DNA of 64,000 bases, from positions 44,224,655-44,288,654 of the forward strand of contig CM039503.1 in the NCBI GenBank assembly GCA_022432975.1, in the 5' to 3' direction. The notes beneath the pieces are model-generated. The model was given only the letters and a program-made list of their open reading frames with translations. It was not told where the DNA came from and searched no databases. Each line of letters begins with the position of its first letter. The stretch's first letter is position 1. Source of the stretch: Begonia masoniana (taxonomy: Eukaryota > Streptophyta > Magnoliopsida > Cucurbitales > Begoniaceae). Below are positions 16,589 through 64,000 of this stretch, piece by piece. Made by a program: the position numbers and the translations under genes.

Positions 16589-17535
16589 TGTAATATCCGG
16601 CCTGTACGGAATTTTAGATTATAATATATATCGGCATTTTCTATAAATATGTCAAATCAAACTCGTTTTACAAAAAGGAAGTGCCATTATGATCCTAATT
16701 ATTAATTGGAATTTTAAGGAATTTACGGGAATTTTCGGAGTAATAACGCTATATTCCGAGTAATTAAGTTTCTCGTAATGCAAAGGACGTTTCAGTAAAA
16801 TTAGTAAACGTGGTCCGATTTGTGAACGGACAGTTTTAATAAATCTCAAATAATAAGTTGGACTTATCGGTGAAATAAGGAGATTTGGTGGAACCGAATA
16901 GCTAGTTAATTAACGAAACGAAGGACGAAATAAATAGAAAACAAAAGAAGGGCAAAATGGTAAATTGCCAAGTCAATTTAACTAAAAACAAAAATTCTCT
17001 CTTTTCTTCCCCACTTTTCTTCTTCTCCACGCGAACCTCTCCCTTCCAGACGATTTCTCCTCCTTGCGCGATTCCACTGCCATCGATGAAGCTTCTCTCC
17101 GACGACCGATTTTCTTCCGATCATTCACGTTTTCTCCTTCAATCTCGACCCTTGGTATGATTCTACAGCTCTAGAAGGTTTACGTTCAAGTTTTACGGAG
17201 TTTGAACGATTAGGGTTTCGTTTAGGTTTCGTTTTAAAATCGAGATTTATGGTCCGAAATTGATAGGTTTGCCGTAATTAAGGATATAGTAAATGGATTG
17301 GACGTTATTGGACGAATTTAATTGATTTTGGACGAATATTAGAATTTGAGAATTTTCGGGTTTTAGGGAAAAACTCGTAAATTGTAGTTTCGAGGTATCG
17401 ATCGTAAATTGTTCATCGATATGCTTCGAATAATTAGGTTAAAAGCTTTAGGAAAATTCTTTAGTTAAAGTTTTGTTAATGTGGACGTTTAAAAGCTTAA
17501 ATTAGTTTTAACGTCGATATTGTGTTTTGCTTCAG

Positions 17536-18239
17536 ACAAACAACGCTCGTGGACGGAGCTTGAGCTGCTTTGGACACGAGGTAAGTTCTCGTGATTCTTC
17601 TCTGGCCGATTGGCCTACACCGTACGTCGAATGTCGTGTCGAGGAATTTTGGAGATGCACTTGTTTTATATTGCTTTGGTTGGGTAGCTAGGCTTATTTG
17701 TTTTATAGATTATGTCTTATAGTCTTTGATGGTATACATTATTGCTTGTTTACTTTAAGATATGAACTGTTCACGCATCACGTGTTTTAAAGAAAAGCAT
17801 GAAAATGAACTTCCGTACAGGGTTTTAAAGATAATGTAAAGCATAGCATAGGCCGAAAGACATATCGGCCGAAAGGCATATTGGCCGAAAGGCATATCGG
17901 CCGAAAGGCATATTGGCCGAAAGGCGTATCGTTTATCGTTCACGCGAGGTGGGGCTCAGGCACGGCTGTACGTGTTGTAAGCGTGTACCCCCCACCTCTA
18001 GCTGGAAAGAGTAGTCCTCCCGCTGGATGAGCTCTCTCCGGTTAGAGGGATAGGATCTCGGTGACACCTATCGTGCATTGCATAGTAAAGAAAATAAAGC
18101 ATGATTTATCGAACTCATACGTACAGCATGCATTGCATTTACGTAGAGCTTACTGAGATTTCATCTCATAGTGTGTATGTATGGTGTAGGTGATTACGAG
18201 GATATAGGTGAGGATGAGATTCCTCCTCCTGAGGCTTGA
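17536..18239 (+). other. putative spliced micro-ORF (exons 17536-17580 and 18190-18239)
   Basis: A 45-nt segment between TTGCTTCAG and GTAAGTTCTC reads KQRSWTELELLWTR in the frame that, once joined to the segment after GGTGTAG, continues GDYEDIGEDEIPPPEA and stops at TGA 18237-18239. No ATG is present in exon 2 (ACG at the position used as ATG in related LTRs), so any start would be in exon 1. Inference from phase and conservation only. Confidence 0.35.
17851..17930 (+). repeat. five tandem copies of a 16-bp unit
   Basis: Units of the form GGCCGAAAGGCATATY repeat five times, with the last base alternating C and T, giving a 32-bp dimer period. It lies between the two predicted exons of this LTR. 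Confidence 0.9.
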
Positions 18240-18779
18240 GTCCAGTTGATGGAGGATGACTGTGGTGGTGTGCTGGCGCAGTCGACGCTTACCTGACCCT
18301 GTGGGGACAATATGTATAGATTTTGAGGGTTTGGGACATTTTGGGGCTGATGTTTGTATAGAAATATTTTAGGTTGTTTGATTCTGGATAGTTGATAGGT
18401 ATATGTGTATATGTTGATGTCTTGGAAACTGTTTTATAATGGTTTGAAAAGTCTTTCATTGAATGTATTTTGGAACTGCGTGGTGATTTAAAACAGGAGG
18501 ATTCGTTTAGGTTTTAAACGTATCCATACACTTCGTTTTCATGAAAATGTTCTTAGTTTTAAAATGTGTTTCTAGTCGTTTATTGGGTGAACGGTGAAGT
18601 GTGAAAAGAATGAGGATATGAGAGAGTTTGTGTCGTGATGTTATTGTATGGTTGGTTTAGGGTGTAAGTATAAGTTGTATTGTGTAGTTGGCGCAGGAGT
18701 AAAGGAAAGAAAGGAATGGGATGGAGGAAAAGAATGGGAGAAGGAAAACAGAGCACTTGGCGAATAGTCGCCAAGCGCG

Positions 18780-18930
18780 GCGACCGAATCGCCTCCCTCT
18801 GGAGAAATCCAGAGGGTGTGGCGATTGATCGCCACAAACTGTGGCGATCAATCGCCACAGGCATTTCACAACAGGCGAATATTCACCTGTTGCGAATCGC
18901 CCCTGTATTTTGGGCGATTGCCCTTTTTGT
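18780..18930 (+). repeat. hairpin cluster near the 3' end of the solo LTR
   Basis: CCTCTGGA-GAAA-TCCAGAGG (18797-18816) forms an 8-bp stem with a four-base loop. Next, TGTGGCGATTGATCGCCACA (18817-18836) and its exact reverse complement (18840-18859) are separated by AAC, a perfect 20-bp inverted repeat whose arms are themselves near-palindromic. CAACAGG...CCTGTTG follows. Equivalent clusters occur in other LTRs here. Confidence 0.85.
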
Positions 18931-19164
18931 CCCTCGATGCTTAAGTTTTAATTAAAGTTTTATTTAATTGTTTTAAATTGTTAAATGTTTATTTAAATAA
19001 GTTTATATTTTAGTTTAAATGGTTATAAGTTCGATTACAACCCCGACTTCGATTCTAATTTCGATTTCGGTTTAGGTTCCGCTTAGGGTTTATTTAAAGT
19101 ATTTATATAAAAAAAATATATGTGTACGGGAAATTGGGTACAGTATTAGGGTCGTTACAACTTC

Positions 19165-28832: not shown

Positions 28833-30717
28833 GAGCTTGTAACACCCGGTTCTTTTTCGGGTTTTAGATTTTCCGCATATGAATGACAATTTTGTAAATA
28901 TACCAAATCAAGCCTGTTTTGCAAATGGAAAGTTTTATTGGAACTCTATAAATAAATTAGAGTATTTGGAGAAATGAGGGAATTTTTGAAGATGTAACGC
29001 CAATTTTACGAGATTTTGGTATTTCTCGTAATATAGGGGTATTTCAGTAAATATAGCAAACTAAACCCGTTTTATGAACGGAAAGTTTTAATAGAACCCT
29101 TATGACTAATATGAATCTTAGGAGAAATATGAAAATTTTAGAAATCCCAAATCGAAGGTATACGGTCAAGTTTCCATTTTTAACCCTATAGTGGTTTAAT
29201 TCGTAAAAATAGTAAACTAGACCTGTTTGACGGACGGAAAGTTTTATTAGAGCCCTAGGAATGAATCGGAATTGTTGGTGAAATAAGAAAATTTGGAGAA
29301 ACCAAATCGATAATTAAATAATGAAATAAGCAAAGGTTAAGTATAAAAGGGTAAATTAGTAAATTATTAAGTTAAATTTACATTAAAAACAAAACCCTCC
29401 TTCCTCCTTATGCAATCCACGATTTTTCCTCTGCAACCCCTCCCTTTCCAGCCGACGATTCCACGCCAAGCTCCCTCCTTTGTTGAAGATTAAAGGTAAG
29501 TTGGATTTTTGGTTTAATGATAGTTGATTTTAGTGTTTATGAGTGAGAAACTAGGGTTTTTTTGGAGGTTTAGAGATTGGGTTTTCTCCAAAAACCCTAA
29601 CCTACGAATTCTCCTCTGAAAATGGATCGTTTGTTGAGTTAAATATGTTTAAATGCGTTCTAAGGATTATGTTTAGATTGTAATGGAAGATGGTGTATAA
29701 TAGAAGAAAGAATTAGAAATGGGTTTGAAAAATGTACAAAAACAGAACACTTTTGGTTTTTTTGAGATCTGATCTAGCTCTTGATTCTAAATTGTTAAAT
29801 GGCTTGTATCAGTGGATAGGGGACTCTTAGAGGAGTCCATAGCAACTTGAACCACTTGATTTCATTAAGAATTGATTAAGTTATGGATTTTTGAAGTTAT
29901 TATGCAAAAACTGGAAAATTTCAGCTGCCAGATCGGTTTTTGATTTTCTGGCGCTAACTGAGTTAGATATTTGGCAAATAGACTCTAGCATGTTAAACTA
30001 AACATTGTAAGGATTCTATGACATTTTGAATTATTGAATTCGGATATGTGTACGATTTATGGTGAATTTTCGAAGTTGGACAAAAAGTAATGATTTAAAA
30101 ACAGAGCAGTTTCGGTTTTAGTTTTTCTTCCAGTATATGTGAATGGCTTTTGATAAATGAGTTTCATCACTAGAAAGTAGACATTCTAAGGAGTCCATAC
30201 CAACTCGAATCACTCGATTTCGTTAAGAATTGATTTAGTTATGAATTTTTGAAGTTGTTGTGTAAAAACTGGAGAATTTCCGCGGTCAGTTCGGTTTTTG
30301 GTCTTTCTGTCACTTTTCTGTTTTATTTTGGATAAAGGGTTGATTCCATGTTAAAATAGATATAATAAGGTTTTCAAAACATGTTGAATCATTGAAATCG
30401 GATAAGAATTGGAGAAGTTATGAATTTTCAAAGTTTAAGTAAAATAGTAAAACGAAATTTCGGGCAGGTCACTGTTCTGATGCAGATTTTATCTTGCAAA
30501 ACTGTTTTTGTGGGAAGAATTAGATACTTTAACAAAGCCGTGGCCTTTGGAATCAAGTCGTTTCAACAATTGTAGAGGAAGTTATAATTTTTCGAAATTG
30601 GTTCATGTTTTGAGCTTGAATAGAGTTTAGGAGATTTTCTTTAGCTAGGAGTTTGTAATTTTCTAAACTCGATAGTTTAGAATTGATTTAAATGACAAAT
30701 GTTGTGCTTTGCCCTAG

Positions 30718-31461
30718 GTGAACCACGCTCGTGGATGGAGCTCGGTGTGCAACGGACGCGAGGTAAGTTCTCGTGATCTTCTCTGGCCGATTGGCCTACA
30801 CCGTACGTCAATGTCGTCTCGAGGAATTTTGGTGACGTTCTGTTTAAATGCTTTGGTTGGGTAGTTAGGATAGGTTGCTTTTATAAGTTATGATTTATCG
30901 TTTTGATGGTACACATGTGGTTGTTTATTTATAATATGAATTGCTCATGCATCACGGTTTTAAATTATACATAGAAAATGAATTTCCGCACTATGTTAAC
31001 ATGTAAAGTGATGTGGCCTGAAAGGGGGCTATCGATCTATTGTGAAAGCCAAAAGAGGTCTGTCACAATACCACATCGTGATGTGGCCTGAAAGGGGGCT
31101 ATTGATCTATTGTGAAGGCCGAGAAAGGGGTCTGTCACAATACCACATCGCCCAAATCGAAATGCACTTTGTTTTCATGTAATGTGATGTGGCCCGAAAG
31201 GGGGCTATTGATCTATTGTGAAGGCCACAAGGGGTCTGTCACAATACCACATCGTGATGTGGCCTGAAAGGGGGCTATTGATCTATTGTGAAGGCCGAGA
31301 AAGGGGTCTGTCACAATACCACATCACCCAAAATGATTTCTGAAACTCATACGCACAGCATGCATCTGCATTTACGAGACTTGCTGAGATTTTTATCTCA
31401 TAGGTGTCTGTATGGTGTAGGTGATTCCGATACAGGTGACTACGAGATCCCTCCATTCTAG
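30718..31461 (+). other. putative spliced micro-ORF (exons 30718-30762 and 31421-31461)
   Basis: A 45-nt segment between TGCCCTAG and GTAAGTTCTC reads EPRSWMELGVQRTR, with ATG at 30735-30737. It joins in phase to the segment after TATGGTGTAG, GDSDTGDYEIPPF, with TAG at 31459-31461. From the ATG the product would be 22 residues. The 72-bp repeats lie in the intervening intron. Confidence 0.38.
31008..31325 (+). repeat. four diverged copies of the 72-bp repeat
   Basis: Four units of the form GTGATGTGGCCTGAAAGG ... TCACAATACCACATC, in two pairs separated by a short unique spacer at about 31151-31183. Units differ at several bases, unlike the uniform array at 32459. This looks like the older source of that array. 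Confidence 0.88.
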
Positions 31462-32349
31462 GAATGATCAGTAGAAGAAGGAATGGCCCGTGGGAGTGCA
31501 CTGGCAGTCGGAGGCGTGATTTTGACCCGTGGGGACATAGGTAAATGTTTTGGGATTTGATAGATAAAAAGAAATGTATAGTTGATGTGTTAGGATGTCT
31601 GGATCTGGATAGTTAATAGAAAGTGTTTTTGGGAAATTGAAAGTGTTTTGAAATGTTTTAGTTGTAACACCCGACAACTTCAGTCAGGTGATTTTCTCAA
31701 TAGAATTAACTGTCACCTGTTTATTTTTTTTTTTAACCTTTTGATTTAATGTCTTAATGCCAAGTTTTTATGTATTTTGTCTTAAACTTGTGCGGTGGCA
31801 GATTGGTAATAAAGTGGTTTTGGCTTATATAAATAGAATAAGGAAATCCTTAAACCTCTCAAAAACCTCACTGTAGCCGTCACACTTTCCTCTTCGAATT
31901 CTCCACTCTCAAGAGCTCTCTCTCAGCCGGCGACTTCTCCACCAGCGAGCGATTTCTCCTGTATCCACTCTGATAACCCACATTCGAGGTAAGGTTCTGA
32001 CAATGTAGTTGTTGGAAAAGTTATTTAGAGCTCTGCTTTTAGCTAGAAACCCGCAGTCCGGATTTTGTTATGATAGAGTAAAATAGGAACATTGTTAAGC
32101 TGAGTTTGGTAATAGCATTGCCGATTTCAATCTGAACTTTTGACAACCGACTGTAAATAACTGCTAGGTTGAATCCGAATGTCTGGAATCTTGGAGCTTA
32201 ACCCACGCACCCAAGGTGCTTGACAGAAAAGACTAAGAAATACAGAGTTTAGGATGACACTTAGTTAGGACCTTACTAGTTTTGAGTTTAAGTTATTTAA
32301 CTACGAATATGAAATGTCATAGGCAAGGAAAGCTCAAGTGAAGGTGCTG

Positions 32350-32450
32350 CTCAGCTAGGGAATCCAGGTAAGTGAATGTATTAAGATTCGGCCACTAGGG
32401 CCCTACACCGCAAGGGTATTAGGAAATCATTGAGATGTCTGTCTGTTGAC
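32350..32450 (+). repeat. left copy of a 101-bp direct duplication flanking the array
   Basis: Begins CTCAGCTAGGGAATCCAGG and ends CTGTCTGTTGAC. The same 101 bp occurs at 34458-34558 right after the array, so the array is bracketed by a duplication of its insertion site. Confidence 0.92.
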
Positions 32451-32458
32451 TTGACTAC

Positions 32459-34457
32459 GTGATGTGGCCTGAAAGGGGGCTATTGATCTATTGTGAAGGC
32501 CGAGAAAGGGGTCTGTCACAATACCACATCGTGATGTGGCCTGAAAGGGGGCTATTGATCTATTGTGAAGGCCACAAGGGGTCTGTCACAATACCACATC
32601 GTGATGTGGCCTGAAAGGGGGCTATTGATCTATTGTGAAGGCCGAGAAAGGGGTCTGTCACAATACCACATCGTGATGTGGCCTGAAAGGGGGCTATTGA
32701 TCTATTGTGAAGGCCGAGAAAGGGGTCTGTCACAATACCACATCGTGATGTGGCCTGAAAGGGGGCTATTGATCTATTGTGAAGGCCGAGAAAGGGGTCT
32801 GTCACAATACCACATCGTGATGTGGCCTGAAAGGGGGCTATTGATCTATTGTGAAGGCCGAGAAAGGGGTCTGTCACAATACCACATCGTGATGTGGCCT
32901 GAAAGGGGGCTATTGATCTATTGTGAAGGCCGAGAAAGGGGTCTGTCACAATACCACATCGTGATGTGGCCTGAAAGGGGGCTATTGATCTATTGTGAAG
33001 GCCGAGAAAGGGGTCTGTCACAATACCACATCGTGATGTGGCCTGAAAGGGGGCTATTGATCTATTGTGAAGGCCGAGAAAGGGGTCTGTCACAATACCA
33101 CATCGTGATGTGGCCTGAAAGGGGGCTATTGATCTATTGTGAAGGCCGAGAAAGGGGTCTGTCACAATACCACATCGTGATGTGGCCTGAAAGGGGGCTA
33201 TTGATCTATTGTGAAGGCCACAAGGGGTCTGTCACAATACCACATCGTGATGTGGCCTGAAAGGGGGCTATTGATCTATTGTGAAGGCCGAGAAAGGGGT
33301 CTGTCACAATACCACATCGTGATGTGGCCTGAAAGGGGGCTATTGATCTATTGTGAAGGCCGAGAAAGGGGTCTGTCACAATACCACATCGTGATGTGGC
33401 CTGAAAGGGGGCTATTGATCTATTGTGAAGGCCGAGAAAGGGGTCTGTCACAATACCACATCGTGATGTGGCCTGAAAGGGGGCTATTGATCTATTGTGA
33501 AGGCCGAGAAAGGGGTCTGTCACAATACCACATCGTGATGTGGCCTGAAAGGGGGCTATTGATCTATTGTGAAGGCCGAGAAAGGGGTCTGTCACAATAC
33601 CACATCGTGATGTGGCCTGAAAGGGGGCTATTGATCTATTGTGAAGGCCGAGAAAGGGGTCTGTCACAATACCACATCGTGATGTGGCCTGAAAGGGGGC
33701 TATTGATCTATTGTGAAGGCCGAGAAAGGGGTCTGTCACAATACCACATCGTGATGTGGCCTGAAAGGGGGCTATTGATCTATTGTGAAGGCCGAGAAAG
33801 GGGTCTGTCACAATACCACATCGTGATGTGGCCTGAAAGGGGGCTATTGATCTATTGTGAAGGCCGAGAAAGGGGTCTGTCACAATACCACATCGTGATG
33901 TGGCCTGAAAGGGGGCTATTGATCTATTGTGAAGGCCGAGAAAGGGGTCTGTCACAATACCACATCGTGATGTGGCCTGAAAGGGGGCTATTGATCTATT
34001 GTGAAGGCCACAAGGGGTCTGTCACAATACCACATCGTGATGTGGCCTGAAAGGGGGCTATTGATCTATTGTGAAGGCCGAGAAAGGGGTCTGTCACAAT
34101 ACCACATCGTGATGTGGCCTGAAAGGGGGCTATTGATCTATTGTGAAGGCCGAGAAAGGGGTCTGTCACAATACCACATCGTGATGTGGCCTGAAAGGGG
34201 GCTATTGATCTATTGTGAAGGCCGAGAAAGGGGTCTGTCACAATACCACATCGTGATGTGGCCTGAAAGGGGGCTATTGATCTATTGTGAAGGCCGAGAA
34301 AGGGGTCTGTCACAATACCACATCGTGATGTGGCCTGAAAGGGGGCTATTGATCTATTGTGAAGGCCGAGAAAGGGGTCTGTCACAATACCACATCGTGA
34401 TGTGGCCTGAAAGGGGGCTATTGATCTATTGTGAAGGCCGAGAAAGGGGTCTGTCAC
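32459..34457 (+). repeat. 72-bp tandem array, about 28 units
   Basis: Nearly identical 72-bp units of the form GTGATGTGGCCTGAAAGG ... TCACAATACCACATC. Three units are a 70-bp variant (GGCCACAAGG instead of GGCCGAGAAAGG), at 32571, 33217 and 34007, spaced 646 and 790 bp apart. Because 72 is divisible by 3 and the unit lacks stops in one frame on each strand, long open frames appear on both strands; they are by-products. Each unit can fold: GATGTGG pairs with CCACATC and TATTGTGA with TCACAATA. Confidence 0.97.
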
Positions 34458-34558
34458 CTCAGCTAGGGAATCCAGGTAAGTGAATGTATTAAGATTCGGC
34501 CACTAGGGCCCTACACCGCAAGGGTATTAGGAAATCATTGAGATGTCTGTCTGTTGAC
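34458..34558 (+). repeat. right copy of the 101-bp duplication
   Basis: Same sequence as 32350-32450, beginning CTCAGCTAGG. It includes a second copy of the GTAAGTGAATG splice-donor context. Confidence 0.92.
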
Positions 34559-35454
34559 TATGACTAGTTATTGCCATGATATGAAGAATTTGTGTAAGAA
34601 GATATTAAGTTACAGGATGTTTTGCTTGTCCTTATGGTATGACTTCTCTCTGTGAACTTCATGTTTATGCATTGAGTCCACGTTTATGACTAAGTTAAGA
34701 ACATGAAAAGTAAATATAATCATGATTAAGTGCAGGACGGGGAAAAGAGACTATGACAAGTATGGCTAGCGGATTCTCCCCCTGGTGGAGGCCGAGTTGA
34801 TGATGTGTATGGCTCGCGAATTCTCCCACTAGGTGGAGGCCGAGTTAGTCGTTACTATGATTGCCGCGATAGGCAATGACCATGTACCCCCGTCTTTCTC
34901 CCTCGTCTCCTGCCTTAATACATGCTATGTAAATAATGAAAATGAGCATAAATGAAGAAAGATTTACGGACTTATGTTTATTAATTTGTACACTCATGTA
35001 TGTCTGCCAGCATGCATTCCTTACTAAGCATTAGGCTTATAGTTAAACCTTATGGTGTAGGTGAAGAAGGTTCAGGTGAGGATGCTATGTTCAAAGAGAA
35101 TGTTTAAAGCTGGTTGCTGGAGGGTGCTCAGAATGACAGTGCAGGACTGGAGAGGCGATTTATGACCCTTGGTTATGCTCATAGTATGTCAGTCGTTTAT
35201 ATGATAAAGAAGGTCTAAGTGGATTAAGATTTCTTATAACAATGGAGTCTGAATTAGCTGATTTAAAATTTGGAATCTGTTAGGGATTTCAAGGATTAAT
35301 GAATGGTCTGCTTTACTTAAGTCTTCCGTTATCTACACTCTGAATGAATTGTAGTTTATCAGTAAGGTTTATGGTCAAGTTGAGCTATATAAATGTTGGA
35401 ATGAGTTCTGTCGTAGAAGTTTCTATCGATGGAAACTAAGTTAGCGTTTTCTAC

Positions 35455-36155
35455 CGGTAGATGTGGTATAGCTATCGGTAGAAGTCGAGATAAATTTTCC
35501 CTTTCGGAAGATGAAATCTGTGGTGTTAATGAGGCACGTGAGAGGCTCGTGTCGAGCGGGCAGAAATAAAGTGTCATGTCATCGGCAGAAGTAGAGTATT
35601 ACGTCATTGGCAGAAGTAGAGTGTTATGTCATCGGCAGTTGTAGGTATTTATGTCATCAGCAGATGTAGAGTATTACGTCATCGGCAGAAGTAGAGTGTT
35701 ATGTCATCGGCAGTTGTAGGTATTTAGTGTCATCGGCAGATGTAGAGTATTACGTCATCGGCAGAAGTAGAGTGTTAAGTCATCGGCAGAAGTAGAGTAT
35801 TTTGTCATCGGCAGATGTAGGTATCTATGTCATCGGCAGATGTAGCGCATTTTTCCACCGGAAGATGTAAGAGTTATTTTGTCGTTAAAGCTACCGGAAG
35901 ATGTCTTCTTGATCGTTGTTCATTAATGGACACGTGATCTGCACATGTTCACTGGTAGATGTATTAGGAAGTTTGTCGTTAGTGCCCGGATGGGGTGTTT
36001 TCTATCGGTAGATGAAGCCCTTTTTTATCGGCAGATGTTGTGTCTGTGAGTATCGGCAGATGCCGCTTAAAAGAGGTGTAGAAAATATGTGTTGCGTGGC
36101 TGGCACGTGACCATCGGTCGATGTGAGCCTAGGACTCCATCGGCAGATGCATTAA
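35455..36155 (+). repeat. CATCGGCAGATG-type short repeats in the nested LTR
   Basis: More than a dozen copies of TCATCGGCAGAWGTAG-like units, spaced about 20-40 bp. The same core with one or two changes (CATCGGAAGATG) fills the equivalent part of the gypsy LTRs at 5931 and 13063. Confidence 0.85.
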
Positions 36156-36593
36156 GATGTGTTTCCAAAAAAAAAATAATAATATAAAAGTAAACGCACG
36201 TTAATGAATAAGATGCATGAAGCATGAACCGAATGATTAGGAGATTAAGAATGGTGATCACGTGACGGCTCCTGGCCGGGGTCGTTACAATAGTGATTTA
36301 AAAACAGGATGATATGTTAAACTTTTAAACGGAACCACGCGGTTCATTTTTATGACATTGGTTATGTTCAATTGTGCTTTGAGTAGGTGAATAGGTCTTT
36401 AATAGCGTGTGTAATGTATGCAAGAGATGGGGTTATTGTATGGATGTATGTTTTTGTGAAATGTAATGGTGTGTGAAGAAGGAATGAGAAAAAGGGAAGA
36501 GTATGTGGTTGTGTTGGGTGTTGTGAGTGTGTGAAGTACAGGGTGTGAAGGGCGTGAAGAAAGAAGGTGGGAAGAGGAGCTGTGCTCTCTGGA

Positions 36594-36780
36594 AAATTTC
36601 CAGAGAGCATGGCGATTGATCGCCCACTTGGGGCAATCAACCGCCCCTCTATGCCTGGCGATCGCTAGGTGATGGTGAGATCGCCTAAGGCGATTGCTCG
36701 CCATGAGCAATCGCCGAAGGGCGATTGATCGCCCACTTAGGGGCGATCAATCGCCACCTGTTCTGCCGTTTGGCAGAACA
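36594..36780 (+). repeat. hairpin cluster at the 3' part of the outer solo LTR
   Basis: Successive inverted repeats: GCTCTCTGGAAA/TTTCCAGAGAGC; GGCGATTGCTC/GAGCAATCGCC; GGCGATTGATCGCCC/GGGCGATCAATCGCC (perfect 15-bp arms); TGTTCTGCC/GGCAGAACA with a GTTT loop. Same layout as in the LTRs at 18780, 40264 and 58755, with different bases in the stems. Confidence 0.85.
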
Positions 36781-37017
36781 TATATATAAAAAAAAGATTT
36801 TTATTTAAATGTTTTCTTTTAGTAATTAATTGTTTAATTAATGGTTTTAAGTTTATTTTATATAGTTTTCAAAGAAATTTTCAAACGCCGTTAACAATTT
36901 CAATTCCGATTTTAAAAGTGTTATTTCCGCTCAAAAGTCAGATTTAAAGTTTGTACGTATAAAAATGAAAAATTTGTACGGAAAAACTAGGGTACGGGTA
37001 AGGGTCGTTACAGAGCT

Positions 37018-37311: not shown

Positions 37312-38350
37312 TGTAACACCCGGCTTTACGGGATTTTGATATTCCGATATATAATGGCATTTTTGTAAATATGTCAAATTAAGTCTGTTTTGTGAAAGGA
37401 AAGCGTTATTAGAATTCTAATAATTAATAAGGATTTTAGGAGAAATACAAGAATCTTTGGAGTTGTAATGCTAATTACGAGGATTTTGCATTTCTCGTAA
37501 TATAAATGATGTTTTAGTAAAAATAGTAAACGAGGTCCATTTTACAAACAGACGGTTTTAATGGAACTCTAGTAATAAATTGGGATTTATGGTGAAATAA
37601 AAAAATTTGGAGGAATCGGATCCATGGTTAATTAACGAAACAAAGGACGAAACAATAGAAAATTAAAAGGAAGGGCAAAAAAGGTAATTTGCCAAGTAAA
37701 TTTTATTAAAAATCACAAAAATCCTTTCTTCTCCACCACACTTGAGATTTTCTTCTCCAGAGAACCCTCCCAGGCGATTCTCTTCTTGTCCTCTCGGCGT
37801 TTCTCTCTTCCAGCGGCAAGCTCTCCTCCGGCAACTCGTTTTCTTCGTGCTTTTTCCTCTAATCAACGCTCTAGGTAAGGTTCTATAGTTTTCAGACTTT
37901 AGTTTTCGATTTTCACGGAGATAAAACGATTAGAGTTTCGTTTAAGGTTTCGTTAAAAACGTGATTTAGGGTTTGAAACTGATAGGTTTACTGTAGTTGT
38001 TGTAACGACCCTTACCCGTATCCTAATTTTTCGTATAAATTTTTATTTTATTTTTTTATTTTTTATTCTTAGAACTTTTAAACCTAACGTTTGAACGGGA
38101 ATCAAAACTTTTAAAATTTGAATCGTTGAAGTTTATGCTTTTAAACTATTTAAACTAGGCTTAGAACAATTTAAATAAACTTAAATCAATGAATTAAACA
38201 ATTAAAAACCATTAAAATCCATCGGCTGAAGGGAGGAGGGCATAAGGGGCATTTGCCCCGAAAAAGTGAGGGGCGATCGATCGCCCATAACAGGCGATCG
38301 ATCGCCACTATCAAAAGGGAGGGGCGAACGTGATCGCCCCTCTTCATGGC

Positions 38351-38430
38351 CATCCGATAAAATTGGAACGATACAGAGAACATTAGCATGGCCCCTGCGC
38401 AAGGATGACACGCACAAATCGAGAAATGGT
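38351..38430 (+). ncRNA. U6 snRNA copy, 5'-truncated pseudogene
   Basis: About 80 bp match plant U6 snRNA from CATCCGATAAAATTGG to GAGAAATGGT, including the ACAGAGA box and GCATGGCCCCTGCGCAAGG; the only difference I notice is a C after ACAGAGAA (normally G). The first ~13 nt and the 3' tail are missing, and there is no USE/TATA promoter upstream, so it is not a working U6 gene. The 3' end overlaps TGGT, the start of the retroelement primer-binding site. Confidence 0.92.
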
Positions 38431-38441
38431 ATCAAAGCCTG
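38427..38441 (+). promoter_or_regulatory. Cassandra primer-binding site (Met-tRNA type)
   Basis: TGGTATCAAAGCCTG is complementary to the 3' end of initiator tRNA-Met apart from one changed base (AAAG for AGAG). It is followed by about 50 bp of internal sequence and a purine tract (AGGGGGTGAT) before the LTR at 38494, the standard compact Cassandra internal layout. Confidence 0.75.
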
Positions 38442-38493
38442 TACCCAACTAAAAATGTGGCCAACGAGGACGTTAGGTCCCCTAGGGGGTGAT

Positions 38494-38870
38494 TGTGATG
38501 ACCCAAATGTGCAAGTATGTGTACGATGGCTACACGAACCAGAACCCGGATGGCGGTATGTCCGCGCGGGTTAACTGAAAGGTGACAGGTCGTAGAAAGG
38601 GGGTCGTCACAATCCCACATCGCTTGGGGAAGTATGTGGAAATGAAACATATGTAAAGAGACCCTTCCAACATAGTAAGACGTATTTTGGAGCACAATTG
38701 ACAACGGATCCCATAAGAACTCCGAAGTTAAAAGTGCTTCGGCGAGAGCAATTCCAGGTTTGGTGACCTTCTGGGAAGTTCTCTCCAAACAAAGCCGTGA
38801 GGGGAGGATTTTGGGCTACGGCACAATCCCCAGAGCGGACAATATCTTGCTGGGAATAGGGGTCATTACA
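38494..38870 (+). repeat. Cassandra TRIM 3' LTR (377 bp)
   Basis: Starts TGTGATGACCC and ends GGGTCATTACA (inverted ends) and contains a 5S rRNA-like segment in the same orientation, the defining trait of Cassandra TRIM elements. The phrase GTCGTCACAATCCCACATCG near 38605 resembles the core of the 72-bp repeat at 32459. Confidence 0.85.
38690..38800 (+). rRNA. 5S rRNA-derived segment inside the Cassandra LTR
   Basis: Matches the 5S internal promoter region: CGGATCCCATAAGAACTCCG, AGTTAAAAGTGCTTCGGCGA (box A region) and TTTGGTGACCTTCTGGGAAG (box C region). It has several changes from canonical plant 5S and lacks the normal ends, so it is an LTR component, not an rRNA gene. Pol III transcription is possible but unproven. 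Confidence 0.82.
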
Positions 38871-39112
38871 GTTGTGAATATAATGGAAGTATCGAGCGTT
38901 ATTGGACGAAGTTAAATTGATTTGTGAGATATTTTAGGGGTTTTTGGAAAAACTCGTAATGGAGGTTTTGGGGTGTCAAGCGTGAATTGCTCGATAAATG
39001 CCTCGATTAGTTAAATTAAAACTTTAGGATAATTCTTTAGTTAAGATTTTGTTAATTTGGACGTTTGACGGATTAAGCTCGTATTAACGACAACTGTTAT
39101 GAATTGCCTTAG

Positions 39113-39744
39113 GTGAACGACGTTCGTGGATGGAGCTAGAATTACAACGGATGTGAGGTAAGTTCTCGTGACTTACTATGGCCGATTAGCCTACACCGTA
39201 CGTCGAAGTCGCGTCGAGGATCATTGGTGAATTGCTCGTTTAAATGTTTTGGTTGGGTAGTTAGGATTAGTTCTTTTATAGGTTATGTTTTGTTGTCTTG
39301 ATGGTATATTTGATGTATGTTTACTTTACGTATTTAACTGTTCATGCATCACGTCTTTTAAAATAGCATGAAAACGGATTTCTGCACATGTTTAAGAAAA
39401 TGAAATGAACAAACGAAATGAATCTACGTAATTTGTTATCTAGTCACGGCGAGGTGGGTTTAGCCCTCGGTAACAATCTGTCTGCAACCTAATTAAAAAG
39501 TAAAATGAACCAATGAAATGAATCTACGTAATCTGTTATCTGGTCACGGCGAGGTGGTTTAGACCTCGGTGACAATCTGTCTGCGACGTAATGAAAAAGA
39601 ATATGTCTGTATGATTCATGAAACGCATATGCACAGTATGCATCTGCATTTACGAAACTTACTGAGCCTTTAGCTCATAGTTGTCTGTATGGTGTAGGTG
39701 ATTTCGAAACAGGTGAGGACGACGTTCCTCCTCCCGAAGCATGA
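39113..39744 (+). other. putative spliced micro-ORF, decayed (exons 39113-39157 and 39698-39744)
   Basis: Same layout as the 3' LTR copy at 46303. In exon 2 two C-to-T changes at CpG sites have turned the Thr-Arg codons into ATG TGA, so the frame is stopped here. Exon 3 still reads GDFETGEDDVPPPEA then TGA. Confidence 0.3.
39410..39600 (+). repeat. two copies of a 100-bp repeat
   Basis: Units around AATCTACGTAA ... GTCACGGCGAGG at 39421 and 39521. Present again in the 3' LTR at 46611 and 46711. Each contains CGAGG...CCTCG-type inverted arms. The slot matches that of the 16-bp and 72-bp repeats in related LTRs. Confidence 0.85.
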
Positions 39745-40263
39745 GTCAGGTTGAAGAAAAATGGTCGCGGGAGTGTGCTGGCGTAGTCGAGGCATTTTTG
39801 ACCCGTGGGGATGTATGTAAGTATTTTGGAGACACGATAGTTAGATATGAACGATGAATGTATAGTTGAACACATTAGGATATTTGGGACCTGGTTAGTG
39901 ATAAGTTTATGTTTTGATGTTTTGGAAACCTATTTTATAAACTGTTTTGTTAAGCTTTGTTGAAAGTTCACTTGGATTGCCTGTTGGTTTTAAATTTCTT
40001 AGGAATTTGTTAGTTTTCAAACGGAACCACGCGATTCGTTTTCAGGAAATTTACTTTGTTTTAAACGTTTTGAATCGTATTTATAGTAATGGGTAAAACG
40101 AAGGATGTGAATGAGTGATTTTACGTTAAAGCATTTTAGAATGTAAATTGATGTTGAAGTGTTTTGACAGGATAAATTGTATTGAAAGTTGAAGGCGGAA
40201 TGGAGAAAAATAGAGGGAGAAGTATAGGTGAAATGTGCAGGGAAAAAAGAGAAATAAGAGAAG

Positions 40264-40446
40264 CAAGCTCTCTGGAAAAATTCCAAAGAGCTGGCCGATC
40301 AATCGCCCGAATGGGGCGATCGATCGGCCCTCTTGGCTACGCTCTGGAAGAAATTTTAGAGCGTTAGCCGATTGATCGCCCAAAAAGGGGTGATCAATCG
40401 GCGGTTCTGTTCATGTGAACAGTACGTTACTGTTCACGTGAATAGT
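40264..40446 (+). repeat. hairpin cluster in 5' LTR
   Basis: AGCTCTCTGGAA/TTCCAAAGAGCT, GGCCGATCAATCGCCC/GGGCGATCGATCGGCC, CGCTCTGGAA/TTTTAGAGCG and GCCGATTGATCGCCC/GGGTGATCAATCGGC follow each other, then CTGTTCA/TGAACAG and a CACGTG near 40437. Some stems here are less perfect than in the 3' LTR copy (58755-58915). Confidence 0.82.
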
Positions 40447-40877
40447 GCCAGAAAAAAAAAAAAAAAATAAAAATAAAAAGGGGTTTTAACTAAATTATTT
40501 TGTCATGTTGACCACTTTTGCCCCCACGTTTGTTGTTATGCTGTTTCTCCTTTGGTTTTAAGTTTTTAAAAGGTTATTTTTAAGTACAATTGTTTTATTG
40601 TTTTTTTTAAATGATTTTCAACGATTTGGACTTTGATTTAAAGTGTTGTTAAAAAAAAAAAAAAAAATTCGTACGAAAAATTAGGAATAGTTTAAGGGTC
40701 TCTACAGTTATGGTATCAGAGCCCCCGGGTTTTAAAATCGGTTCTGTAGGCTGCTCGACTACACAGCCACTACGCGGACATTCTTCCTCAACCGTAAGTA
40801 TATTTAAATGCTTTATTTGATTTCGATTTCTTAGAGTTATTTGTTTTAACTTTTATAGGCGTTATATAAAAAAAAAC

Positions 40878-45359: not shown

Positions 45360-47457
45360 TGTAACACCCGGCTTTACGGGATTTTGATATTCCAATATAT
45401 AATGACATTTTTGTAAATATGTCAAATTAAGTCCGTTTTGCAAAAGGAAAGCGTTATTAGAATCCTAATAATTAATAAGGATTTTAGGAGAAATACGAAA
45501 GTTTTTGGAGTTGTAACGCTAATTACGAGGATTTTACGTTTCTCGTAATATAAAAGATATTTTAGTAAAAATAGTAAACGATATCCGTTTTACGAACAGA
45601 CAGTTTTAATGGAACCCTAGTAATAAATTGGGATTTATGATGAAATAAGAAAATTTGGAGGAATCGGATCCATGGTTAGGTAACGAAACAAAAGACGAAA
45701 CAATAGAAAATCAAAAGGAAGGGCAAAAAAGTTAATTTGCCAAGTAAATTTTATTAAAAATCACAAAAATCATTTCTTCTCCACCACACTTGTGATTTTC
45801 TTCTCCAGAGAACCCTCCCAGGCAATTCTCTTCTCCTCCTCTCCGCGTTTCTCTCTTCCAGTAACGAGCTCTCCTATGGCGACTCGTTTTCTTCGTGCTT
45901 TCTCCTCCAATCAACGCTCTAGGTAAGGTTCTGTAGTTTACAGACTTTAGTTTTCGATTTTCACGGAGATAAAACGATTAGGGTTTCATTTAGGGTTTCG
46001 TTAAAAACAAGATTTAGGGTTTGAAACTGATATGTTTACCGTAGTTGTGAATGTAATTGAAGTATCGAGCATTATTGGACAAAGTTAAATTGATTTGTGA
46101 GAAATTTTAGGGTTCGAGAATTTTAGCGGTTTTTGGAAAAACTCGTTAATGGAGGTCTTGGAGTGTCTAGCATGAATTGCTCGATAAATGCCTCGATTAG
46201 ATAAATTAAAACTTTAGGATAATTCTTTAGTTAAGATTTCGTAAATTTGGACGTTTGACGGATTAAGCTCGTATTAACGACAACTGTTATGAATTTCCTT
46301 AGGTGAACGACGCTCGTGGATGGAGCTAGAATTACAACGGACGCGAGGTAAGTTCTCGTGACTTACTATCGCCGATTGGCCTACACCGTACGTCGAAGTC
46401 GCGTCGATGATCATTGGTGAATTGCTCGTTTAAATGTTTTGTTTGGGTAGTTAGGATTAGTTCTTTTATAGGTTATGTTTTGTTGTCTTGATGGTATGTA
46501 TGATGTATGTTTACTTTACGCATTTAACTATTAATGCATCACGTCTTTTAAAATAGCATGAAAACGGATTTCTGTACATGTTTAAGAAAATGAAATGAAC
46601 GAATGAAATGAATCTACGTAATCTGTTATCTGGTCACGGCGAGGAGGGTTTAGCCCTCGGTGACAATCTGTCTGCAACCTAGTTAAAAAGTAAAATGAAC
46701 CAACGAAATGAATCTACGTAATCTATTATCTGGTCACGGCGAGTTGGTTTAGACCTCGGTGACAATCTGTCTGCGACGTAATGAAAAAGAACATGTCTGT
46801 ATGATTCATGAAACGCATATGCACAGCATGCATCTGCATTTACGAAACTTACTGAGCCTTTAGCTCATAGTTGTCTGTATGGTGTAGGTGATTTCGAAAC
46901 AGGTGAGGACGACGTTCCTCCTCCCGAAGCATGAGTCAGGTTGAAGAAGAATGGTCGCGGGAGTGTGCTGGCGCAGTCGAGGCATTTTTGACCCGTGGGG
47001 ATGTGTGTAAGTATTTTGGAGACACGTTAGTTAGATATGAACGATGAATGTATAGTTGAACATATTAGGATGTTTGGGATCTTGTTAGTGATAAGTTTAT
47101 GTTTTGATGTTTTGGAAACCTATTTTATAAACTGTTTTGTTAAGCTTTGTTGAAAGTTCACTTGGATTGCTTGTTGATTTTAAATTTCTTAGGAGTTTGT
47201 TAGTTTTCAAACGGAACCACGAGATTCGTTTTCAGGAAATTTTACTTCGTTTTAAACGTTTTGAATCGTATTTATAGTAATGGGTAAAACGAAGGATGTG
47301 AATGAGTGATTTTACGTTAAAGCGTTTTAGAATGTAAATTGATGTTGAAGTGTTTTGACAGGATAAATTGTATTGAAAGTTGAAGGCAGAATGGAGAAAA
47401 ATAGAGGGAGAAGTATAGGTGAAATGTGCAGGGAAAGAAGTGAAATAAGAGAAGCAA
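45360..47457 (+). repeat. 3' LTR of the second gypsy element, first part
   Basis: Matches 37312 onward and carries the empty site of the chimeric insertion. It is cut at the AGCAA target site by the CRM-like element and resumes at 58750. Confidence 0.92.
46303..46934 (+). other. putative spliced micro-ORF, best-preserved copy (exons 46303-46347 and 46888-46934)
   Basis: A 45-nt segment lies between TTTCCTTAG and GTAAGTTCTC. Its ATG (46320-46322) opens MELELQRTR, which joins in phase across the predicted intron to GDFETGEDDVPPPEA and a TGA at 46932-46934, a 24-residue acidic peptide. A branch-point-like ACTTACTGAG and TATGGTGTAG precede exon 3. Upstream in-frame codons in exon 2 (ERRSW) are shared with related LTRs, so translation could also begin in exon 1. 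Expression is unproven. Confidence 0.4.
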
Positions 47458-58749: not shown

Positions 58750-60856
<2,107 letters not shown>

Positions 60857-61879
60857 TGTAAGATCCGCCAAATTTTAGTAGTTGTAAAAATTTGAATAAA
60901 TTTTTCGCAAATTTTAATTGTAAATAATTGGGATTAATTTCACTAATTTTACGGTAAGAATTTAGATCGTGAAACTGAACGTTAAATTAAATATAATTAA
61001 TTGTAAAATTTAATAAAAAGAACCAAGTAAAATTTTAAAATAAAAAATAAAATAAAAGAATTAAATAAATATAAAATAAAATAATAAATAAATAAAATAA
61101 ATAAAAGAAAAAGTTAAAAGATAAGGTTTCTAAAAGAAACCTTATCTCTGTCGGCAGTAAGCAAAAAAGAACCAGAGAAAAGAGAGAGAGGAAAGAAGCC
61201 GACGCGAGGGAGAGAACCGCCGACGCCGGAACGACCTTCGTTCGTCGCAATTTTGGTGTCAAAACGTTCATCTTGAAGGGTAGATCAACGTTTGTGAAGG
61301 ACGTTTTCGAAGGTAATCCCTCTTTCTCCCGATTTTTGCCCGAGAAGTTTCGGGTTTTAGGTTTTGTCAGATCTGAGTTTTTGGGGTCGATTTCTCGGTG
61401 TTTTTGGCAGGGATCCACTCGAAAAGTGGTTAGAAACGCGTTGGAAAAGAAATTTGGCAAAAAACAGGTAAGAAATCGTGATTTTTCTGACGCAGGTTAG
61501 TCGCCGGCGTGTCGTCGGAGTGTCGCCGGCGTTTGGTTGTCGACGGTCGAGTCAACTCGACTGTGGGCTGAGTCAACTCGGGTGTTGGGTCTAGTTGACT
61601 CAGGCCCAAGGCCGAGTTGACTCGGGCCAAGGGTTGAGATGGGCCTGGGCCGACTTGGACTCGGTTAGGTTTGGCCAAGCCCGATCCGGCTTCGGGCCAA
61701 GCTGGGCCCAGACCCTATGGTCTTCTGGGCCGGGTTTGACCCAGCCCATCAGGCCGGGTTTACCCAGCCCATTACGGGTCGAACCCGCCTGGTCCGACCG
61801 ATCTGGGTTTGGGCCGGGCCTAGCTCGAGCCCAGTTGGAACGGGTTGGTCTGGATCAAACCGATCCGACCCGGCCCAAC
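60857..61879 (+). mobile_element. start of an LTR-like unit, then degenerate GC-rich repeat
   Basis: TGTAAGATCCGCC at 60857 resembles a gypsy LTR start. It is followed by an AT-rich part, a leader-like GA-rich stretch, and splice-donor contexts (CGAAG/GTAATC near 61312 and ACAG/GTAAG near 61468). From 61500 the sequence becomes GC-rich with repeated GAGTTGACTCGGG- and GGGCCGGG-like phrases that grade into the 56-bp array. No end is visible, so identity is uncertain. Confidence 0.45.
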
Positions 61880-64000
61880 CCGAACCGATTTGGTTGGACC
61901 CGAACCAGACCTGACCAATTTGGGTTCAACCTAACCCGAACCGATTTGGTTGGACCCGAACCAGACCCGACCAATTTGGGTTCAACCTAACCCGAACCAG
62001 TCCCAACCAGATTTGGTTGGACCCGAACCAGACCTGACCAATTTGGGTTCAACCTAACCCGAACCGATTTGGTTGGACCCGAACCAGACCTGACCAATTT
62101 GGGTTCAACCTAACCCGAACCGATTTGGTTGGACCCGAACCAGACCTGACCAATTTGGGTTCAACCTAACCCGAACCGATTTGGTTGGACCCGAACCAGA
62201 CCTGACCAATTTGGGTTCAACCTAACCCGAACCGATTTGGTTGGACCCGAACCAGACCTGACCAATTTGGGTTCAACCTAACCCGAACCGATTTGGTTGG
62301 ACCCGAACCAGACCTGACCAATTTGGGTTCAACCTAACCCGAACCGATTTGGTTGGACCCGAACCAGACCTGACCAATTTGGGTTCAACCTAACCCGAAC
62401 CGATTTGGTTGGACCCGAACCAGACCTGACCAATTTGGGTTCAACCTAACCCGAACCGATTTGGTTGGACCCGAACCAGACCTGACCAATTTGGGTTCAA
62501 CCTAACCCGAACCGATTTGGTTGGACCCGAACCAGACCTGACCAATTTGGGTTCAACCTAACCCGAACCGATTTGGTTGGACCCGAACCAGACCTGACCA
62601 ATTTGGGTTCAACCTAACCCGAACCGATTTGGTTGGACCCGAACCAGACCTGACCAATTTGGGTTCAACCTAACCCGAACCGATTTGGTTGGACCCGAAC
62701 CAGACCTGACCAATTTGGGTTCAACCTAACCCGAACCGATTTGGTTGGACCCGAACCAGACCTGACCAATTTGGGTTCAACCTAACCCGAACCGATTTGG
62801 TTGGACCCGAACCAGACCTGACCAATTTGGGTTCAACCTAACCCGAACCGATTTGGTTGGACCCGAACCAGACCTGACCAATTTGGGTTCAACCTAACCC
62901 GAACCGATTTGGTTGGACCCGAACCAGACCTGACCAATTTGGGTTCAACCTAACCCGAACCGATTTGGTTGGACCCGAACCAGACCTGACCAATTTGGGT
63001 TCAACCTAACCCGAACCGATTTGGTTGGACCCGAACCAGACCTGACCAATTTGGGTTCAACCTAACCCGAACCGATTTGGTTGGACCCGAACCAGACCTG
63101 ACCAATTTGGGTTCAACCTAACCCGAACCGATTTGGTTGGACCCGAACCAGACCTGACCAATTTGGGTTCAACCTAACCCGAACCGATTTGGTTGGACCC
63201 GAACCAGACCTGACCAATTTGGGTTCAACCTAACCCGAACCGATTTGGTTGGACCCGAACCAGACCTGACCAATTTGGGTTCAACCTAACCCGAACCGAT
63301 TTGGTTGGACCCGAACCAGACCTGACCAATTTGGGTTCAACCTAACCCGAACCGATTTGGTTGGACCCGAACCAGACCTGACCAATTTGGGTTCAACCTA
63401 ACCCGAACCGATTTGGTTGGACCCGAACCAGACCTGACCAATTTGGGTTCAACCTAACCCGAACCGATTTGGTTGGACCCGAACCAGACCTGACCAATTT
63501 GGGTTCAACCTAACCCGAACCGATTTGGTTGGACCCGAACCAGACCTGACCAATTTGGGTTCAACCTAACCCGAACCGATTTGGTTGGACCCGAACCAGA
63601 CCTGACCAATTTGGGTTCAACCTAACCCGAACCGATTTGGTTGGACCCGAACCAGACCTGACCAATTTGGGTTCAACCTAACCCGAACCGATTTGGTTGG
63701 ACCCGAACCAGACCTGACCAATTTGGGTTCAACCTAACCCGAACCGATTTGGTTGGACCCGAACCAGACCTGACCAATTTGGGTTCAACCTAACCCGAAC
63801 CGATTTGGTTGGACCCGAACCAGACCTGACCAATTTGGGTTCAACCTAACCCGAACCGATTTGGTTGGACCCGAACCAGACCTGACCAATTTGGGTTCAA
63901 CCTAACCCGAACCGATTTGGTTGGACCCGAACCAGACCTGACCAATTTGGGTTCAACCTAACCCGAACCGATTTGGTTGGACCCGAACCAGACCTGACCA
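61880..64000 (+). repeat. 56-bp tandem array, about 38 units, open at window end
   Basis: Units built from CGAACCGATTTGGTTGGACC, CGAACCAGACCTGACC and AATTTGGGTTCAACCTAACC repeat every 56 bp. The first two or three units vary (an irregular one near 61990-62010); the rest are essentially identical to the end of the window. The length is not a multiple of three, so it does not encode a repeat protein. Confidence 0.97.

What the first reader, a model, noticed from the sequence alone, without database searches (positions are those of the whole stretch)
38001..38870. Three-part chimeric retro-insertion: antisense gypsy LTR end, U6 snRNA and Cassandra TRIM
Seen: a single 870-bp unit with TG...CA ends and perfect GTTGT duplications; the host element's other LTR shows the empty site. 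Its left end is the reverse complement of a gypsy LTR 3' terminus, the middle is U6 snRNA, the right is Cassandra PBS-internal-LTR with 5S-like sequence. Known: LTR-element reverse transcriptases switch templates between co-packaged RNAs, and Cassandra carries 5S in its LTR. Inference: one cDNA was assembled from three RNAs in one particle and integrated by integrase. Both outer ends derive from U5-type (…TTACA) ends, so integrase seems to have accepted a molecule with two U5 ends. I know of no described element of this make-up.
Basis: partly seen in the sequence, partly recalled or inferred. Interest (0 to 1): 0.93.

Follow-up and report, generated by a model that had tools for sequence, protein, structure and literature searches.

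The report
U6-bridged two-headed retrotransposon DNA insertions
The 870-base insert is a real patchwork of a gypsy retrotransposon end, a piece of a cellular splicing RNA (U6) and a Cassandra mini-retrotransposon, and this plant's genome holds several similar inserts made separately, which shows how these elements' copying enzyme stitches different molecules together and still gets them inserted.

Summary
Window 38001-38870 is one insertion with a perfect GTTGT duplication; the host element's other LTR shows the empty site. It joins the antisense 3' end of a Ty3/gypsy LTR (354 bp; relatives up to 92% identical), U6 snRNA nt 12-91 (79/80 identical to a genomic U6 gene) and Cassandra PBS-internal-LTR with 5S-like sequence. 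The junctions share CATC and AAATGGT.

The intact unit is single-copy in the search, but its build recurs. U6-AAATGGT-PBS occurs at 10 loci (9 events); an eleventh locus joins full-length U6 at Cassandra's U3 boundary. U6 length and left partner differ. Seven of these 10 events are head-to-head with U5-type outer ends (one right end truncated) and 5-bp duplications (six perfect, one 4/5). Three further such units lack U6; one is another gypsy-Cassandra chimera.

Best explanation: Cassandra minus-strand cDNA runs off its template, jumps to U6 RNA by 7-nt identity, then onto a second tRNA-primed minus strand (Cassandra or gypsy), giving two-U5 DNA that integrase accepts. Inverted TRIM dimers and LTR template-switch chimeras were known; my paper searches showed neither U6 bridging nor gypsy-Cassandra hybrids.

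The parts
37996..38000 (.). target site duplication GTTGT, left copy
38001..38354 (-). antisense 3' (U5) end of a Ty3/gypsy LTR; outer end TGTAACGACCC is the LTR terminus; last 4 nt CATC shared with U6
   Evidence: reverse complement matches 3 of 4 LTR ends tested in the window, not the two LTR starts tested; relatives up to 92%; exact breakpoint from three relatives
38319..38342 (.). perfect hairpin near the inner end of the gypsy arm (9-bp stem, 6-nt loop)
38351..38430 (+). U6 snRNA nt 12-91 (numbered on the genome's own U6 gene), 1 mismatch in 80; starts at the base of the U6 5' stem-loop
38424..38430 (+). AAATGGT, shared by U6 (CGAG-AAATGGT-CC) and the Cassandra U5/PBS boundary (TTAC-AAATGGT-ATC): the template-switch site
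   Evidence: same letters in 10 of 10 junctions printed
38427..38438 (+). Cassandra PBS, TGGTATCAAAGC (11/12 to the published TGGTATCAGAGC)
38427..38493 (+). Cassandra internal region with G-rich PPT at its 3' side (CCTAGGGGG, 38481-38489)
   Evidence: 89% to cINT 1-65 of an ordinary copy
38494..38870 (+). Cassandra LTR, 377 bp, TGTGATGACCC...GGGGTCATTACA
   Evidence: 93.9% to an ordinary copy over 1-377
38685..38795 (+). 5S rRNA-like stretch of the Cassandra LTR; box A 38726-38737 (10/12), box C 38756-38768 (11/13), 18 nt apart
   Evidence: motifs from PMC7215508
38871..38875 (.). target site duplication GTTGT, right copy
37312..40706 (+). host: 5' LTR of a Ty3/gypsy element, interrupted by the unit; PBS TGGTATCAGAGC at 40711 (tRNA-iMet type, label recalled) and gag-pol ORFs downstream on +
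45360..47457 (+). host element's other LTR (first part), carrying the empty site

Best explanation
The unit is an integrated head-to-head product of reverse transcription made from two tRNA-primed minus-strand cDNAs bridged by U6 snRNA. (1) A Cassandra minus strand was made in a particle, passed the first strand transfer and reached the PBS, where its RNA template normally ends. (2) Its 3' end, ...ACCATTT, paired with AAAUGGU near the 3' end of a co-packaged U6 RNA and copied U6 up to the base of U6's 5' stem-loop. (3) The new 3' end, using CATC identity, moved onto a gypsy minus-strand cDNA, probably a strong-stop product that ended about 350 nt in, within a hairpin-rich tract, and copied it to its 5' end, the gypsy U5 terminus. 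(4) The double-stranded molecule then had U5-type termini at both ends and needed no plus strand primed at the PPT. Integrase joined it to a GTTGT target inside another gypsy LTR. Shown by sequence: the parts, polarity, junction identities, termini, duplication, empty site and recurrence. Inferred: the particle, RNase H run-off, the order of jumps, and which element's integrase acted.
For: Single integration with TSD and empty site. Polarity: the left arm is an antisense U5 end.

Recurrence: 32 of 32 first-look U6 candidates in the genome were scored. Twelve matches in 10 loci run U6 straight into the Cassandra PBS at AAATGGT, and one more locus joins full-length U6 to the U3/PPT boundary. Seven are complete canonical copies taken as the genes and 12 are other copies, two of which were not cut out or looked at. 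Two C13 loci are a segmental duplicate (left flanks 96.5% identical over 2.87 kb), which leaves 10 U6-Cassandra events.

Of these 10, seven have U5-type outer ends with TSDs GTTGT, GAGCC, ACTTC, GATAA, TACTG, GGTAG and CTATC/CTATT (4/5); one (C4) is an ordinary two-LTR element with a 40-nt U6 patch before the PBS, TSD GATTT; two have an unresolved left side. U6 5' endpoints vary (nt 1, 2, 5, 12, 12, 13, 35, 47, 52, 53, 54) and so do left partners, so the events are best read as independent.

Three two-U5 units without U6 have TSDs AAATT, CATAG and CAACG; the last is again an antisense gypsy U5 arm joined to sense Cassandra. Switch points lie at the U5/PBS or the U3/PPT boundary, the two expected run-off ends, except the direct gypsy-Cassandra joint inside the LTR. 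U6 is packaged at about 1 copy per MLV or RSV virion, and cellular RNAs can splint non-homologous retroviral recombination (PMC4997597, passages).
Against: No cDNA or particle was observed. The order of jumps is not fixed: two minus strands could instead have annealed by their 3' ends, or tRNA could have primed on U6 itself. L181 and L188 do not fit cleanly (SINE-like palindrome; sense gypsy LTR on the left), and no left copy of their right-flank pentamer next to a TG end was found. L191's right LTR lacks about 60 nt of its 3' end, so only ...ACA remains of that terminus. The direct gypsy-Cassandra joint in L126 lies at LTR position 314, not at a run-off boundary. Seven of ten carriers have 1-5 mismatches in U6, so junctions in older copies are less certain. 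No clear TATA box marks the inner end of the arm as the 5' end of the gypsy RNA.
Confidence: 0.78

Rival explanations
1. The cDNAs were joined after reverse transcription: a Cassandra-U6 cDNA and a gypsy (or second Cassandra) cDNA were ligated end to end by the cell's microhomology-mediated repair, and the product was then integrated by integrase.
For: The left junction has only 4 nt of identity (CATC) and left junctions vary between events; both are also typical of end joining (general knowledge).
Against: It still needs reverse transcription to make the U6-PBS junction, which is identical in 10 of 10 junctions printed. It does not by itself predict that the second molecule is joined so that its outer end is U5, although end joining of minus-strand products could give that.
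Confidence: 0.15
2. A Cassandra subfamily acquired U6 once next to its PBS, and the loci are its ordinary or rearranged descendants.
For: The U6-PBS junction is identical in all 10 printed junctions, and some carriers group in a tree of the internal region plus LTR: trio L181/L182/L189 support 0.90, quintet L185/L187/L188/L190/L191 support 0.98.
Against: Carriers fall in at least four places among 28 comparison copies; many branches are weakly supported, the 28 are the best matches to the window unit rather than a random sample, and two of them (L126, L148) are themselves chimeras without U6. Inside both groups the U6 length and the left partner differ. The only element seen with LTR-U6-PBS-LTR order carries U6 from nt 52, too short to be the parent of the longer ones. 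L187 joins U6 to the U3 boundary instead.
Confidence: 0.05
3. The three parts are separate, nested or successive insertions.
For: Nested insertions occur here: the host LTR itself, and L128, an ordinary nested Cassandra with TSD GGCCC.
Against: No duplication at any internal junction. One 5-bp duplication brackets the whole, the arm's outer end is exactly the gypsy terminus, and the same build recurs with other duplications.
Confidence: 0.01
4. Assembly artefact.
For: Reads were not available.
Against: Ten two-U5 units at separate places carry their own 5-bp duplications, nine perfect and one 4/5; an artefact would not create these.
Confidence: 0.01

Closest known systems
Inverted tandemly arrayed TRIM (maize Zma-SMART, TSD CTTCA; Gao et al. 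2016, PMC4717578, Fig. 2C legend; passages seen)
   Same: Two TRIMs in inverted order within one target duplication.
   Different: In the passages seen: one element family, no U6, no gypsy partner, nothing on U5 termini or mechanism; 'template switch' and 'head-to-head' occur 0 times in the main text.
Template-switch complexes of LTR retrotransposons in Triticeae (Sabot and Schulman 2007, PMC1950507; abstract and results section read)
   Same: Two templates fused during reverse transcription, one 5-bp duplication.
   Different: Same strand, with a third internal LTR and similar outer LTRs; no antisense arm, no cellular RNA.
LINE-mediated tripartite chimeras (Gogvadze et al. 2007, PMC2104539; abstract read)
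   Same: Three different transcripts fused by successive template jumps.
   Different: LINE machinery with longer duplications (14 bp in that case); here LTR-type ends and 5-bp duplications.
Retroviral snRNA packaging and tertiary-template patch repair (review PMC4997597, passages; Giles et al. 2004 cited there, paper not held)
   Same: U6 in particles; cellular RNA splints non-homologous joints with short homology.
   Different: Retroviruses of animals; here integrated plant examples with a fixed 7-nt switch site.
Cassandra TRIM (PMC7215508, PMC10853983; passages and one section seen)
   Same: LTR with 5S-like boxes, PBS TGGTATCAGAGC, short internal region, arrays.
   Different: In the passages seen, arrays are tandem; 'head-to-head' occurs 0 times in PMC7215508 and 'snRNA' 0 times in either main text.

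Membership tests
Cassandra TRIM (right part) | 5S-like LTR sequence with box A and box C 18 nt apart | tested here: met
   boxes 10/12 and 11/13 with 18-nt gap; Rfam 5S 37.0 bits, just below the cut-off of 38; 13 of 14 related loci hold a match above it
Cassandra TRIM (right part) | PBS TGGTATCAGAGC next to the LTR | tested here: met
   11/12 at 38427; the ordinary copy L123 has it two bases after the LTR
Cassandra TRIM (whole unit) | two LTRs in direct orientation | tested here: not met
   only one Cassandra LTR, the left one is replaced; the unit is a chimera, not a Cassandra element
Cassandra TRIM (whole unit) | TG...CA ends and 5-bp duplication | tested here: met
Ty3/gypsy LTR (left part) | terminus and sequence of an LTR of an element with gypsy-type proteins | tested here: met
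   matches the LTR 3' end of the host element (score 97, shuffle maximum 81), whose + ORFs carry gag, protease, RT-RNaseH and an SH3_Tf2-1 domain; closest genomic LTRs 92%, their own coding regions not examined
U6 snRNA (middle) | U6 covariance model | tested here: met
   84 bits against a cut-off of 44. Of the related loci, 7 of 14 have U6 at the cut-off; the 38-45-nt U6 fragments in L188-L191 do not reach it
LINE-made U6 pseudogene | 3' poly(A) or LINE tail and long variable duplication | tested here: not met
   5-bp duplication, LTR ends, no tail
Same-strand template-switch complex (Sabot and Schulman) | direct order with closely similar outer LTRs | tested here: not met
   outer ends come from different elements in inverted order
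Inverted TRIM dimer | two elements head to head in one duplication | tested here: met
   met in form by 10 units; in three of them, this one included, one half is gypsy, not TRIM

The most novel reading that the evidence does not exclude
LTR retrotransposons have a side pathway that makes integration-competent DNA from two minus strands joined head to head, with U5 at both ends and no PPT-primed plus strand. In this plant U6 snRNA is its preferred splint because Cassandra's U5/PBS boundary and U6 share AAATGGT. The gypsy arms are a physical trace that this gypsy lineage packages and integrates Cassandra, whose autonomous helper is unknown.
Probability: 0.5. Interest if true: 0.85.

Novelty: new variant of a known kind. 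Interest (0 to 1): 0.72.

Why it matters
These loci are natural records of aberrant reverse transcription caught by integrase. They indicate that a cellular RNA (U6) enters LTR-retrotransposon reverse transcription in a plant, that the entry point is set by a 7-nt sequence identity, and that two-U5 DNA can be integrated with normal target duplication. The gypsy-Cassandra hybrids offer a route to an open question: a 2024 discussion states there is no indication of which autonomous element mobilises Cassandra (PMC10886601, discussion section). The U5 ends of the two elements differ at 1 of the last 10 positions in this unit and are identical there in the ordinary Cassandra copy L123, as one helper integrase would require.

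Tried and rejected
Separate insertions: rejected by the internal-duplication test. Left part as an LTR start in sense orientation: rejected, because the two LTR starts tested do not match and the forward strand does not exceed shuffles at the LTR ends. LINE-made U6 copy: rejected (5-bp duplication, LTR ends, no tail). A TATA box near the inner end of the gypsy arm, which would mark it as a full strong-stop product, was looked for by eye in the printed LTRs and not found clearly, so I do not claim that the arm ends at the RNA 5' end.

It was uninformative and none was examined. A protein search with a neighbouring gag gave hits whose named sources were flowering plants, the best 41% identical; I did not identify the species. 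The tree had two mis-oriented rows and was redone. L193 was incomplete and left out of counts. L181 and L188 were left unresolved; L186 (U6 without Cassandra) was not explained. A count of all Cassandra PBS sites could not be obtained: the pattern search never got an answer, so no frequency is given. One search scored only 40 of 7511 candidates, so 'single copy' means among those, and the comparison copies are the closest ones, not a random sample. Novelty searches: (open-licence papers only). One search listed 15 of 69 papers holding at least three of four terms; none of those 15 held both U6 snRNA and Cassandra.

Full report
THE UNIT. Window 38001-38870 lies in the 5' LTR of a Ty3/gypsy element (37312-40706, PBS TGGTATCAGAGC at 40711, gag-pol ORFs on +). 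It is bracketed by GTTGT, and the element's other LTR reads through the same place without it. The two host LTRs differ by K2P 0.054 over 2080 aligned sites, about 2 million years at 1.3e-8 per site per year (rate recalled), and the unit is younger than the host insertion.

ANATOMY. 38001-38354 is the reverse complement of a gypsy LTR 3' end. Within the window it matches three of four LTR ends tested (scores 205, 186, 97 against shuffle maxima of 78-81); the forward strand and the two LTR starts tested stay within the shuffles, and a fourth LTR end of another type does not match. In the genome the closest copies are 92% identical over the whole query (40 of 2643 candidates scored). Three fetched copies show the gypsy sequence running ...CTCTTCATGGCCATC-GATCG (GATTG in one) while U6 runs ...GGGACATC-CGATAAAA, so CATC is shared. 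38351-38430 is U6 nt 12-91 with one mismatch in 80. 38424-38430, AAATGGT, is shared by U6 and the ordinary Cassandra boundary ...GTTACAAATGGTATCAGAGCC. The rest is Cassandra: PBS, internal region, PPT, and a 377-bp LTR that is 93.9% identical to an ordinary copy with a 5S-like stretch.

NOT ALONE. Among the candidates scored (40 of 7511) the whole 870 bp occurs once. A search with U6 plus 10 nt of PBS scored 32 of 32 first-look candidates. Twelve matches in 10 loci run from U6 into the Cassandra PBS at AAATGGT. One more (C12:30.78 Mb) is U6 from nt 1 through its 3' tail joined to the Cassandra U3 boundary. Seven are complete canonical copies, taken as the genes; 12 are other copies, of which two were not cut out. 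Two C13 loci are one event copied by segmental duplication (left flanks 96.5% over 2.87 kb). That leaves 10 U6-Cassandra events.

ARCHITECTURE. Seven of 10 have an antisense left half whose outer end is a U5 terminus and a sense Cassandra right half: window (gypsy arm, GTTGT); C12:26.25 Mb (about 45 nt of antisense Cassandra U5, GAGCC); C13:9.60 Mb (antisense Cassandra, ACTTC); C3:20.41 Mb (antisense Cassandra, CTATC/CTATT); C12:30.78 Mb (antisense Cassandra array, GATAA); C13:34.02 Mb (antisense Cassandra through PBS and the end of U5, TACTG); C2:36.78 Mb (antisense gypsy arm, GGTAG; right LTR truncated). One (C4:4.45 Mb, GATTT) is an ordinary two-LTR Cassandra with a 40-nt U6 patch between U5 and PBS. 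Two (C2:45.22 Mb, SINE-like left side; C7:42.78 Mb, sense gypsy LTR on the left) are unresolved. U6 5' endpoints are nt 1, 2, 5, 12, 12, 13, 35, 47, 52, 53, 54 (11 U6 copies in these 10 events).

WITHOUT U6. Of 29 loci L122-L150 (each about 1.5 kb either side of the match), three showed both orientations. L148 is a 1526-bp head-to-head Cassandra with AAATT. L126 holds an antisense gypsy U5 arm of 281 nt joined directly to sense Cassandra, nested in another Cassandra with CAACG. L128 is an ordinary nested insertion (GGCCC) and serves as a contrast. L192, taken because one search listed opposite strands there, is a 2048-bp head-to-head Cassandra with CATAG. L193, taken for the same reason, was incomplete. 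All three gypsy arms (window, L191, L126) are antisense U5 ends of one LTR family (scores 97-205 against maxima of 100 plain shuffles up to 66) and end inward in the same hairpin-rich tract. This family is common here (at least three LTR ends in the window alone, 2643 first-look candidates), so abundance may contribute to its being the partner.

MECHANISM. Joints fall at the U5/PBS boundary or at the U3/PPT boundary (L187, L148, L192), where minus-strand synthesis is expected to run off its template (established LTR-element replication, recalled); the direct gypsy-Cassandra joint in L126 is an exception. From there the strand jumped, in the 10 U6 events onto U6 (nine of them at 7 nt of identity), and then in seven of the 10 onto a strand that carried it to a U5 terminus. 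That second template is most simply a minus-strand cDNA, whose 5' end is U5 by tRNA priming. The product has U5 at both ends. The host gypsy element with the same PBS has other bases before it (ACAGTTATGGTATC at 40711), and none of the U6 matches whose flanks were printed (30 of 32) ran into a PBS other than Cassandra's.

INDEPENDENCE. In a tree of internal region plus LTR the U6 carriers fall in at least four places among 28 comparison copies, with two groups of carriers (supports 0.90 and 0.98) inside which U6 length and left partner differ. Many branches are weak, and two comparison copies (L126, L148) are chimeras without U6.

PRIOR WORK. An inverted TRIM dimer with a duplication was shown in maize (PMC4717578, legend in passages), same-strand template-switch complexes in Triticeae (PMC1950507), template switching by Tnt1 in tobacco (PMC2923131, passages), and a LINE tripartite chimera in a fungus (PMC2104539, abstract). 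U6 is packaged at about one copy per MLV or RSV virion, and cellular RNAs can splint recombination (PMC4997597, passages). Nothing seen in my ten searches reports U6 bridging in LTR elements of plants or gypsy-Cassandra hybrids; most hits were seen only as listings and subscription journals are not covered.

LIMITS. One assembly, no reads, species not named, no total count of Cassandra sites, and no experiment. The identity of the helper is an inference from co-occurrence in one molecule and from near-identical U5 ends.

Noticed in passing
38612-38685: The Cassandra LTR holds a perfect plant snRNA-type USE (ATCCCACATCG, 38612-38622; consensus RTCCCACATCG from PMC9845283, passages) 73 nt before the start of the 5S-like stretch, and a TATA-like ATATGTAAA (38649-38657): the layout of a U6-type Pol III promoter placed in front of a 5S-type internal one. 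It is the only exact match in the window; expected by chance 0.04.
   Followed up: partly
31068-34397: A 72-bp tandem array and a shorter repeat inside a gypsy LTR carry ATACCACATCG, one base from the USE motif, 30 times (3 + 27); with one mismatch allowed the window has 32 sites against 1.08 expected. Part of the unit resembles the Cassandra LTR (26/30).
   Followed up: partly
28838-37012: Apparent solo gypsy LTR of about 8.2 kb, swollen by tandem arrays, with TSD GAGCT.
   Followed up: no
16589-19159: Solo gypsy LTR of the same family, TSD ACTTC.
   Followed up: no
59033-60157 and 61874-64000: Apparently about 1.1 kb of near-pure A (only its end was printed) and a tandem repeat with a period near 56 bp reaching the window end.
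   Followed up: no
L181:1-3932 (U6-plus orientation), C2:45.22 Mb: U6-Cassandra joined on the left to a SINE-like tRNA-type sequence (my reading; ARAGORN found no tRNA) and a large inverted repeat next to a gypsy LTR start; the outer left end was not found.
   Followed up: partly
L186:3994-4080, C15:34.66 Mb: U6 copy next to a GATCGATCG hairpin tract like that of the gypsy LTRs, without Cassandra.
   Followed up: partly
L183 and L184, C13:9.60 and 4.46 Mb: One event with two successive U6-PBS joints in the same unit, copied by segmental duplication; the right end is lost in one copy.
   Followed up: partly
U6 copies in L121, L181-L183, L185, L187-L191: U6 5' endpoints cluster at the RNA 5' end (nt 1-5), the base of the 5' stem-loop (nt 12-13) and nt 47-54, with one at nt 35; this may mark reverse transcriptase pauses on U6.
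   Followed up: no
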